This document shows, in pieces, positions 22,701 to 25,473 of a stretch of 64,000 nucleotides of DNA; positions within the stretch are counted from its first letter, which is position 1, and the number at the start of each line of letters is the position of its first letter. The notes beneath the pieces were generated by a model. It saw nothing but the letters and a program-made list of their open reading frames with translations, was not told the DNA's origin and made no database searches. The position numbers were made by a program, and so were the translations under genes. The stretch is from contig PAPB01000022.1 of the NCBI GenBank assembly GCA_002708715.1, forward strand, positions 10,112 through 74,111, given 5' to 3'. Origin of the DNA: Fidelibacterota bacterium. Lineage in GTDB: Bacteria > Fidelibacterota > Marinisomatia > Marinisomatales > UBA1611.

Positions 22701-23993
22701 ATGAAAAAAATAGCACTCCATTGGCAAATTATAATTGGACTTTTCCTTGGTCTAATCTATGGTTTTATATCGACCAATCTGGGTTGGGGCTCATTCACAA
22801 CTAATTGGATTGCACCATTTGGTACTATATTTATCAATCTTCTAAAATTAATCGCTATGCCTCTTGTTTTAGCGTCTCTAATCACAGGAGTTGCATCACT
22901 ATCTGATGTAAAAAAACTTAGTAGGATTGGAGGAAAAACAATCTCAATTTATATAGGAACTACTGCATTAGCAGTTACAATAGGTCTTATTTCAGTAAAC
23001 ATACTAAAACCTGGTGATAAGATTCCCATTGAAATGAAAGAGAAATTGCAAACTTTATATGAAAAAGATGCCGAAAATAAAGCAAGTTCTGTTCACAAAG
23101 TAAAAAATAGGGGACCACTTCAACCAATTGTTGATATGGTACCAAATAACTTTTTCAATTCTGCATCTAATAATAGAAACATGTTACAAGTTGTTTTTGT
23201 TGCTATTTTAATAGGGGTTGGCCTAATACAAATTCCTAAAAAAAATAGTAAACCTCTAAAACTTTTTTTTAAGAGCCTTTCAGATGTTGTAATTAAACTT
23301 GTAGATATTATAATGCTAATCGCACCAATAGGAGTTTTTGCTCTTATATCTCAAACAATTAATAAGGTAGCTGGGGATAATCCCTCTCAGGTTCTTGAAT
23401 TATTAGGTGCTCTTGGTTTTTATATGTTTTCTGTAATCTTAGGCTTAATTATTCATGTAATAATTACCTATATGGGTATGATGAGATTCTTTACTAAGAT
23501 GAAAGTACAAACTTTCTTTAAAGGATTAGCTCCCGCTCAATTATTAGCATTCTCTACTAGTTCAAGCGGAGCAACCTTACCTGTGACAATGGAACGCTGT
23601 GAAGAAAAATTAGGCGTAAGTGAAGAAGTTTCTTCTTTTGTTTTACCTCTAGGCGCGACAATCAATATGGACGGAACTGCTCTATATCAAGCAGTAGCAG
23701 CTGTATTTATTGCTCAAACTCTTAATATGTCTTTAGATATTAGCGCTCAAATAACAATTGTCCTTACTACTGTTTTAGCATCTATAGGAACTGCGGCTGT
23801 TCCAGGAGCTGGAATTGTTATGCTAGTTATAATTTTAGAATCTGTGGGAGTTCCTAGTGAGGGGATTGCAATTATACTTGGTGTTGATAGAATATTAGAT
23901 ATGATGCGAACTACAGTGAATGTTACTGGAGATGCGACTGTTAGTATAATAATTTCAGAATCAGAAGACCAAATAAACACTCCTATCATTTAA
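22701..23993 (+). CDS. dicarboxylate/amino acid:cation symporter (GltP-like)
   Basis: A 430-residue DAACS-family (SLC1-like) transporter for glutamate, aspartate or C4-dicarboxylates, driven by Na+ or H+. Diagnostic motifs are the serine-rich re-entrant loop STSSSGATLPVTME, the NMDGT motif in ATINMDGTALYQAVA, and the final helix DRILDMMRTTVNVTGDATV. An extended, charged loop after the third helix (EMKEKLQTLYEKDAENKASS) lies where the family varies. AAGG lies 8 nt before the ATG. The gene converges on hflX, with the inverted-repeat RNA candidate between them. Confidence 0.96.
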   Translation: MKKIALHWQIIIGLFLGLIYGFISTNLGWGSFTTNWIAPFGTIFINLLKLIAMPLVLASLITGVASLSDVKKLSRIGGKTISIYIGTTALAVTIGLISVNILKPGDKIPIEMKEKLQTLYEKDAENKASSVHKVKNRGPLQPIVDMVPNNFFNSASNNRNMLQVVFVAILIGVGLIQIPKKNSKPLKLFFKSLSDVVIKLVDIIMLIAPIGVFALISQTINKVAGDNPSQVLELLGALGFYMFSVILGLIIHVIITYMGMMRFFTKMKVQTFFKGLAPAQLLAFSTSSSGATLPVTMERCEEKLGVSEEVSSFVLPLGATINMDGTALYQAVAAVFIAQTLNMSLDISAQITIVLTTVLASIGTAAVPGAGIVMLVIILESVGVPSEGIAIILGVDRILDMMRTTVNVTGDATVSIIISESEDQINTPII

Positions 23994-24036
23994 TATTTTT
24001 TTATAAAAATTAATATTCATTATATTCACTGATTAT

Positions 24037-24208
24037 TAACGGGTAGGTTCTGTATTTTTTGGATCTATAACTATCTATTGGGTGCTGTACTTCAGGTTCA
24101 AAAAACAGGCCTTTTCGTTCTTAGCGAATCAAGGAAGTTTGCTGTATTTGAGAGGCTCCCGTCATTCATTAAACAAAGAATGATCCCAAAAAACAATCTA
24201 CCCGTTAT
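24037..24208 (+). ncRNA. putative structured RNA with 6S-like rod architecture
   Basis: The gap between the convergent gltP-like and hflX genes folds by eye into one long rod. Its ends pair as taacgggtag (24037-24046) with ctacccgtta (24198-24207), extended by GU/AU pairs. A second helix pairs ttttttgg-atc (24055-24065) with gat-c-ccaaaaaa (24082+100 to 24193). A large central bubble follows: 24066-24079 on one side, and about 24161-24180 on the other, which can form a small cattc/gaatg hairpin. Above it are gggtgct/ggctccc, ttcaaa/tttgag, aaac/gttt and ttcg/cgaa helices. A long rod with a central open bubble is how 6S RNA mimics a melted promoter. A TATATT box at 24021-24026 is placed for a start near 24035. 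No terminator was seen and the strand is uncertain. A mobile-element remnant or an unusual bidirectional terminator are alternatives. Confidence 0.45.
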
Positions 24209-25473
24209 TAATTTAAACCAGAAGTAATCTGCTTTATTCTTGGCCTAGATCCTCTAATTTTTAATTTAACTTTATCATCTTCAAATAATCTCTCTAATAC
24301 TTCAACTCCACTTTGAGCATTTGCAATTACTTTTCCATTTCGATATGGAATCTGCAATTCAATAGTTTGGAAACTCTCTTCCATCTGCTCAATAATCTTA
24401 TTCTTTAATTCAGAAAGTAAAAGATGTTGTTTAGCTGAGATAACTATAGAATTTTGTAAAGAACGTCTTATCCTTTCTATTTTATCAGGACTGGAGATTA
24501 AATCAACTTTATTTAATACAAATAGAGTAGGAACTTTTTGCGCACCCATTTCCTCTAATACACTATTAATAGTGATTAAATGATCTTCCATATCTACAGA
24601 AGAAATATCAAGAACTATGATAATTAAATCAGCTTCTAATACTTCTTTTAAAGTACTCTTGAACGATGCTACCAAATTATGAGGTAACTTTCTAATAAAT
24701 CCAACAGTATCACTTAACAAGACTTGGTGCGAAGAATCCAAATCTAGTTTTCTTATCGTAGTATCCAAAGTTGCAAATAATTGATCTTTAATATAAACGT
24801 CTGACCCAGTTAACGCTTTAAAAAGTGTTGATTTACCTGCGTTAGTATAACCTACTAATGAAACACGATATTCAGATGAACGACGCATACTTTGTGTCTC
24901 ACGTTCTTTCTCAATTTTTGTAAGTTCTTTTTTTAAACGACTAATACGAGTTCTTATTAATCTTCGATCTATTTCGATTTGTGTTTCACCCATTCCTGCA
25001 CGTGTACCTATACCACCCATTTGACGTTCTAAATGAGTCCATTGTCTTGTTAACCTAGGTAACAAATACTCTAAATATGCTAAATTAACTTGGGTAGCTG
25101 CTTCTTTGGATCGTGCATGATTTTTAAATATATCTAGAATAAGACCATTTCGATCTAATACTTTTACTTTTTCAGACATTTGATGATAATTCTTAATCTG
25201 AGCTGGACTTAATTCATCATCAAAAATAATTAAACTAGCACCAATTTCATTTGCCTGTGAAAGTATCTGCTTAGCTTTCCCGATTCCAATTAATGTTGCT
25301 GGATTTATAGTTCTTATTTTTTGAGTTACTCTACCGACTACTTTGGCACCTGCAGTATTTGCTAATAATTGTAACTCATCAAGATGCTCTTCTATACGCT
25401 TTTCATCAATAAAGCGGTTTATTACCCCAACGAGAATCGCTTTTTCTTGTTGAATTTGATTATTATGGATCAA
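24208..25473 (-). CDS. hflX: GTPase HflX
   Basis: A 421-residue ribosome-associated GTPase of the OBG-HflX group, which in other bacteria splits or rescues stalled 70S ribosomes. The N-terminal HflX domain has AILVGV and FDDELSPAQIKN. The glycine-rich linker LERQMGGIGTRAGMGETQIE follows, then the G domain with G1 GYTNAGKSTLF, G3 DTVGFIRKLP and G4 NKVD. The start is TTG in a TTGA overlap with the BatA-like gene. No ATG lies close, and the resulting N-terminus fits the family. It is the last gene of the operon, and its stop codon touches the foot of the inverted-repeat element. Confidence 0.96.
   Translation of the reverse strand: MIHNNQIQQEKAILVGVINRFIDEKRIEEHLDELQLLANTAGAKVVGRVTQKIRTINPATLIGIGKAKQILSQANEIGASLIIFDDELSPAQIKNYHQMSEKVKVLDRNGLILDIFKNHARSKEAATQVNLAYLEYLLPRLTRQWTHLERQMGGIGTRAGMGETQIEIDRRLIRTRISRLKKELTKIEKERETQSMRRSSEYRVSLVGYTNAGKSTLFKALTGSDVYIKDQLFATLDTTIRKLDLDSSHQVLLSDTVGFIRKLPHNLVASFKSTLKEVLEADLIIIVLDISSVDMEDHLITINSVLEEMGAQKVPTLFVLNKVDLISSPDKIERIRRSLQNSIVISAKQHLLLSELKNKIIEQMEESFQTIELQIPYRNGKVIANAQSGVEVLERLFEDDKVKLKIRGSRPRIKQITSGLN

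What the first reader, a model, noticed from the sequence alone, without database searches (positions are those of the whole stretch)
24037..24208. Rod-shaped inverted-repeat element resembling 6S RNA
The ends pair over 13 positions (10 perfect), a second helix continues inward, and a central bubble has a small hairpin on its 3' side below a stacked apical arm. That is the 6S RNA layout, in a gap between convergent genes with a TATATT box at the right distance. 6S RNAs are poorly described in this kind of lineage.
Basis: partly seen in the sequence, partly recalled or inferred. Interest (0 to 1): 0.6.

Follow-up and report, generated by a model that had tools for sequence, protein, structure and literature searches.

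The report
6S RNA gene of a Marinimicrobia bacterium
This stretch is almost certainly the gene for 6S RNA, a small RNA that imitates an open promoter and holds RNA polymerase in reserve, in a marine bacterial group where the standard RNA database search usually fails to see it; the molecule is a known kind, only its place here is new.

Summary
The finding holds. Window 24037-24208 (+) folds as a rod with a 12-pair closing stem, a second helix, a central bubble with a hairpin on its 3' side, and a long apical arm (z -4.05). It is single copy in its genome. The genome is Candidatus Marinimicrobia (SAR406). Rfam's 6S model does not see this copy at any reported threshold. Homologues settle the identity. 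A covariance model built only from the window's order (R3) matches 180 of 245 genomes of the phylum, and RF00013 (6S) matches 56 of the same 245, 19 above its curated cut-off, up to 85.3 bits. Of these 56 places, 41 could be compared with a printed R3 place and all 41 coincide. Covariation is strong: 38 of 47 pairs change on both sides, score 0.500 against 0.197 shuffled. The base aligned with E. coli U44, where pRNA synthesis starts, is a pyrimidine in 71 of 72 homologues and is followed by A in 65 of 72. A sigma70-like promoter lies upstream and the gene usually sits beside hflX. No transcript was examined. It is a new member of a known kind.

The parts
24036..24209 (+). 6S RNA core (span of the covariance models R2 and R3)
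   Evidence: z -4.05, 190 bits with R2 and 154.6 bits with R3 (the window copy is in both training sets)
24037..24048 (+). closing stem, 5' strand
   Evidence: helix 1 of A3: all 6 modelled pairs with changes on both sides
24196..24207 (+). closing stem, 3' strand
24056..24062 (+). second helix, 5' strand; the conserved GGAUC (24061-24065) continues it in the consensus fold
24186..24192 (+). second helix, 3' strand
24063..24079 (+). 5' side of the central bubble, template region
24068..24068 (+). predicted start site for pRNA synthesis (base aligned with E. coli U44); predicted pRNA begins AUAGAUCCAAAAAA
   Evidence: alignment to E. coli ssrS; same base from the RF00013 alignment of L111; pyrimidine in 71 of 72, followed by A in 65 of 72. 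Inference, not measured
24080..24160 (+). apical arm, with the near-invariant ACAGGCCUU / AAGGAAGU internal-loop region
24161..24184 (+). hairpin on the 3' side of the central bubble
   Evidence: helix 9: 2 of 2 pairs with changes on both sides
24011..24016 (+). probable -10 element TAATAT at the offset conserved in relatives
   Evidence: TAnnnT starting -26 to -24 upstream of the model start, 52 matches in 71 homologues, shuffled maximum 23; TTG peak at -49/-48 (27)
24021..24026 (+).
   Evidence: present in sequence; not at the conserved offset
24208..25473 (-). hflX, GTPase HflX, convergent neighbour common across the phylum
   Evidence: TIGR03156, E 6.5e-127
22701..23993 (+). SDF-family sodium:dicarboxylate/glutamate symporter, upstream neighbour
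   Evidence: PF00375, E 1.5e-126

Best explanation
The element is the gene for 6S RNA (SsrS) of a Marinimicrobia bacterium. A rod-shaped RNA of about 175-190 nt is transcribed from its own sigma70-like promoter. Its closing stem, central bubble and apical arm imitate an open promoter, so that the housekeeping RNA polymerase holoenzyme binds it when growth slows. When nucleotides return, the polymerase uses the 5' side of the bubble as a template, starting at or near 24068, and makes a short pRNA. The pRNA refolds the RNA and frees the enzyme. Shown here: conserved structure, strand, single copy, phylum-wide conservation, homology to RF00013, promoter signature, and a conserved start-site signature. 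Inferred from established knowledge of 6S RNA: polymerase binding, pRNA synthesis, growth-phase regulation and the exact transcript ends.
For: Fold z -4.05 on the + strand. R2 matches 89 of 130 genomes of the order, nearly always once. R3 matches 180 of 245 of the phylum, 75 of 94 of the good assemblies. RF00013 matches 56 of 245, 19 over the cut-off, and 41 of 41 comparable places coincide with R3. In 20 loci outside the order, chosen from R3 or RF00013 matches, RF00013 matches 18 at the R3 place, 7 over the cut-off, best 85.3 bits. Covariation: A3 93.2% of cells paired, 38 of 47 pairs with two-sided changes, score 0.500 against 0.197 shuffled and at most 0.111 slid. The MAFFT alignment A1, made without a structure, gives 24 of 47 and 0.348 against 0.161. 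A4 with other families gives 41 of 47 and 0.653 against 0.216. Wobble pairs 316 against 39 A-C/C-A cells fix the strand. The best R2 match in the E. coli ssrS locus is ssrS on its own strand (13.8 bits, next 6.9). pRNA start signature, promoter, hflX linkage in 56 of 80 hflX loci.
Against: RF00013 does not report the window's own copy: none at gathering, none at E up to 10 on 23950-24300, none genome-wide. No transcript, pRNA or polymerase binding was examined. The pRNA lacks the GG at position 4/5 that is noted as conserved in several bacteria (PMC8414754, passages): 8 of 70 homologues have it, the window does not. The link to E. coli is weak by itself (13.8 bits). 65 of 245 genomes had no R3 match, including all 24 genomes of one small-genome family.
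Confidence: 0.96

Rival explanations
1. Another polymerase-binding or otherwise rod-shaped RNA of similar shape (for example Ms1-like, binding core polymerase) that is not 6S.
For: Shape alone does not separate these classes; the window's copy does not score with RF00013.
Against: RF00013 matches homologous places full-length at up to 85.3 bits, and 41 of 41 comparable places coincide. Length is about 172 nt, not about 300 nt as described for Ms1 (PMC9130861, passage). No other Rfam family matched credibly.
Confidence: 0.02
2. A structured bidirectional terminator or shared 3' end of the two convergent genes, without a trans-acting RNA.
For: It lies in a 214-base gap between convergent genes and abuts the hflX stop codon.
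Against: Conserved promoter upstream, separate terminator hairpins downstream in many relatives, near-invariant unpaired segments, strand fixed by wobble pairs, and conservation in genomes where it is not next to the hflX 3' end (G017).
Confidence: 0.01
3. A MITE or other dispersed inverted repeat.
For: Inverted-repeat ends.
Against: Single copy in its genome; one copy in nearly all genomes with a match; usual position next to hflX.
Confidence: 0.005

Closest known systems
6S / SsrS RNA, Rfam RF00013 (E. coli ssrS, B. subtilis 6S-1)
   Same: Rod shape, closing stem, central bubble with 3' hairpin, apical arm with the GcAaGCC / GGAAgC type internal loop of the RF00013 consensus, pyrimidine-A at the pRNA start; homologous places in the phylum score up to 85.3 bits.
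   Different: The window's own sequence has diverged beyond the reach of the RF00013 model; the predicted pRNA begins AUAGAUCC followed by six A and lacks GG at 4/5; the neighbour is hflX rather than zapA/fau as in E. coli.
6S-Flavo, Rfam RF01685 (Bacteroidetes)
   Same: A diverged 6S that the general model misses (PMC2864571, passages); Bacteroidetes and Marinimicrobia are related phyla (recalled).
   Different: No RF01685 match to the window region or to the relatives searched; relatives score with RF00013 instead.
Ms1 RNA of Actinobacteria
   Same: Central bubble, polymerase-associated class (PMC9130861, passages).
   Different: Ms1 is about 300 nt with extra hairpins at both ends and binds core polymerase (PMC9130861, passages); here about 172 nt without such hairpins.

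Membership tests
6S RNA | Homology to accepted 6S RNAs (RF00013) | tested here: met
   R3, built only from the window's order, and RF00013 point to the same places: 41 of 41 comparable; 18 of 20 chosen loci outside the order match RF00013, 7 over the cut-off. Shown through relatives, not by the window's copy alone.
6S RNA | Window copy by itself reaches the RF00013 gathering score (a search threshold, not a biological trait) | tested here: not met
   No RF00013 match. RF00013 also misses most of this phylum's copies (19 of 245 genomes over the cut-off, against 180 of 245 with R3), so this measures the model's reach.
6S RNA | Rod of about 160-200 nt: closing stem, central bubble, apical arm | tested here: met
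   length range from PMC8414754 (passage)
6S RNA | Hairpin opposite the 5' bubble strand | tested here: met
   covariation of both modelled pairs (81.7% of cells paired)
6S RNA | pRNA start: purine start with a conserved adenine immediately upstream | tested here: met
   pyrimidine template base in 71 of 72, followed by A in 65 of 72; adenine feature from PMC8414754 (passage). Position rests on alignments.
6S RNA | GG at pRNA positions 4/5 or 5/6 (described as conserved beyond lactic acid bacteria, not as universal) | tested here: not met
   GG at 4/5 in 8 of 70; window AUAGAUCC. Feature from PMC8414754 (passage).
6S RNA | Binds the sigma70 holoenzyme and templates pRNA | not testable with these tools
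   needs biochemistry
6S RNA | Abundant, growth-phase-dependent transcript | not testable with these tools
   no transcript data at hand
6S-Flavo (RF01685) | Match to the RF01685 model | tested here: not met
   searches list no RF01685 match
Ms1 RNA | About 300 nt with extra terminal hairpins | tested here: not met
   model span 174 nt; folds
MITE | Multiple dispersed copies | tested here: not met
   1 copy in the genome

The most novel reading that the evidence does not exclude
In the window's close relatives the template next to the pRNA start is GGAUC preceded by a run of about six U, so the pRNA would be AUAGAUCC followed by a run of A. The polymerase could slip on this run, and release could depend on pRNA slippage or on the ATP level rather than on a GC-rich pRNA duplex. 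At the same time one small-genome family of the same order shows no credible 6S RNA in 24 of 24 genomes searched, so the phylum would offer a natural comparison of marine lineages with and without 6S control.
Probability: 0.12. Interest if true: 0.5.

Novelty: new member of a known kind. Interest (0 to 1): 0.3.

Why it matters
6S RNA is a global regulator of transcription. Here it is placed in a whole uncultured marine phylum where the standard Rfam search reports it over the cut-off in 19 of 245 genomes but a lineage model finds it in 180 of 245. This gives annotators a model, makes existing ocean metatranscriptomes testable for 6S and pRNA, and points to a family that appears to have lost it.

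Tried and rejected
RF00013 on the window and its genome: no match. The only reported match near the element, leu-phe_leader at E 6.4, and the STnc230 (E 1.4) and anti-hemB (E 0.13) matches in relatives, are below their cut-offs and were read as chance. The first consensus model R1 lost the closing stem because MAFFT misaligned it in distant members; it was not used for any count. A first alignment mixed strands and was discarded. The regex-adjusted pRNA list imposes pyrimidine and A and was used only for the GG tally, not as evidence for the start site. The three best weak R3 matches in the small-genome family (27-29 bits) lie inside long reading frames and were rejected. MITE, bidirectional terminator and Ms1 readings were considered and rejected for the reasons given under rivals. 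Antisense R2 matches in L020 and L022 (26.8 and 23.6 bits) were read as the near-palindromic rod seen from the other strand and were left out.

Rows left out of counts: L003 (contig ends inside the element) from A1; L003, L005, L009, L025, L115 (truncated, N-bearing or near-identical) and the duplicates L118 and L119 from A3; of the 89 genomes with an R2 match those not fetched are not in A3. L004 was left out of the promoter count for lack of upstream sequence.

Full report
OBSERVATION. The element at 24037-24208 (+) is real and well above chance. Its minimum free energy is -50.5 kcal/mol against a shuffled mean of -33.58 (z -4.05, 0 of 200 shuffles as low); the other strand gives z -2.62. 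The layout is closing stem, second helix, 17-base single-stranded 5' side of a bubble, apical arm, and a hairpin on the 3' side of the bubble. With the flanks that may belong to the transcript (24023-24220) z is -4.50. The gap lies between an SDF-family symporter and hflX, which converge. The genome is Candidatus Marinimicrobia, judged from the named records that carry the nearest hflX relatives.

WHAT RFAM SAYS. The window as a whole has no Rfam match at gathering, and the element has no 6S match even at E up to 10 or in the whole genome. Taken alone this would count against 6S. In the same search RF00013 was over the cut-off in 4 of 14 control genomes, so its reach is limited.

HOMOLOGUES. 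The 172 bases found matches at E of 0.003 or better in 43 of 61 genomes, own genome included, with the core 42-124 best conserved (my count; the tally of 59 of 61 at E up to 1 includes short chance matches). In 12 of these loci RF00013 matched 4 at exactly the homologous place, all full-length (L028 36.9 bits, L017 22.7, L021 22.2, L029 21.6). Over 61 relatives RF00013 matched 9, 1 over the cut-off; by my reading of the two lists 8 of the 9 places are printed as R2 places and the ninth (G022) is too, so 9 of 9 coincide.

LINEAGE MODELS. R2 was built from 29 sequences aligned without a structure (A1) and matches 89 of 130 genomes of the order (33 of 45 good assemblies). R3 was built from 72 members of the order (A3) and matches 180 of 245 genomes of the phylum (75 of 94 good assemblies), nearly always once; G027, G224 and G226 have two. 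RF00013 over the same 245 genomes matches 56, 19 over the cut-off, best 85.3 bits. Of the 56 places 41 could be compared with printed R3 places and all 41 coincide; the other 15 R3 places were not printed or absent. I then read 20 places outside the order: 19 had been printed as R3 matches and 1 (G195) came from the RF00013 list. R3 matches all 20 and RF00013 matches 18 at the same place, 7 over its cut-off. This is the decisive evidence: the window's element is homologous to RNAs that pass the accepted 6S model.

COVARIATION AND STRAND. On A3, which is fitted to the model and so leans to it, 93.2% of cells pair, 38 of 47 pairs have two-sided changes, and the score is 0.500 against 0.197 (shuffles) and at most 0.111 (slid partners). 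On A1, which knew no structure, the figures are 94.6%, 24 of 47, and 0.348 against 0.161 and at most 0.123; the structure there was derived from the same alignment. Across families (A4) they are 91.1%, 41 of 47, and 0.653 against 0.216. G-U cells outnumber A-C cells 316 to 39 in A3, so the + strand is the RNA.

FUNCTIONAL SIGNATURES. R2's best match in a 1.2 kb E. coli ssrS locus is ssrS on its strand, 13.8 bits against 6.9 for the next. That alignment puts E. coli U44 on window base 24068, and the RF00013 alignment of L111 puts the equivalent base in the same column. In A3 the column is C or U in 71 of 72 and the next base is A in 65 of 72. A conserved adenine just upstream of the pRNA start is reported as a hallmark (PMC8414754, passages). 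The GG hallmark of the same paper is absent in the window and present in 8 of 70 homologues. U44 as E. coli start site is from PMC8876501 (passage).

EXPRESSION SIGNALS. Upstream of 71 homologues TAnnnT peaks at -26 to -24 relative to the model start (52 matches, shuffled maximum 23) and TTG at -49/-48 (27), a sigma70-like spacing. The start would lie about 13 bases upstream of the model, near 24023 in the window. The window's -35 region is poor, and the strict promoter scan found none at the element. Many relatives carry a terminator hairpin directly downstream; the scan found none in the window.

CONTEXT. Among 80 named hflX loci, 56 have an R2 match, all on the strand opposite hflX, 4-125 bases from the end of the hflX match in 53 and 575-609 in 3. 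Of the 24 without, 2 have no more than 2 bases of sequence left on that side. G017 carries the RNA about 4.5 kb from hflX on the same contig, judged from contig length and coordinates, so the linkage is common but not absolute.

ABSENCE. All 24 genomes of one family of 0.4-1.0 Mb assemblies (f15) lack a credible match even with laxer filters; the three best weak matches lie in reading frames. Incomplete assemblies and divergence are not excluded.

MECHANISM. Polymerase sequestration and pRNA-driven release are inferred from the family (PMC8414754 and PMC8876501, passages). Nothing here measured expression or binding.

NOVELTY. Full-text searches found 0 papers with '6S RNA' together with Marinimicrobia, SAR406, Neomarinimicrobiota or Marinisomatota in an open-access library that lacks most subscription papers. 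Members of this phylum over the RF00013 cut-off may already be listed in Rfam; this was not checked. I file it as a new member of a known kind.

Noticed in passing
genomes G046, G056, G063-G084 (family f15 of the window's order): No credible 6S RNA in 24 of 24 small genomes (0.4-1.0 Mb), several over 90% complete; possible loss with genome reduction.
   Followed up: partly
L031-L110 (hflX loci): 6S RNA sits convergently just downstream of hflX in 56 of 80 named loci; a conserved neighbour not seen at E. coli ssrS.
   Followed up: partly
24050-24068: Template next to the predicted pRNA start holds six U in a row in the window (seven in some close relatives), so the pRNA would carry a run of A; elsewhere in the phylum it reads CAGGAUC or GGAACC.
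   Followed up: no
G027:C4 and G027:C43; G224; G226: Two 6S copies in one assembly; could be strain mixture in the assembly or true duplication.
   Followed up: no
upstream of the homologues, e.g. L027, L116, L158: A conserved leader ending in TTTTTGACAA or similar (TTGAAAGT, which extends the closing stem, in close relatives of the window) between the promoter and the closing stem.
   Followed up: no
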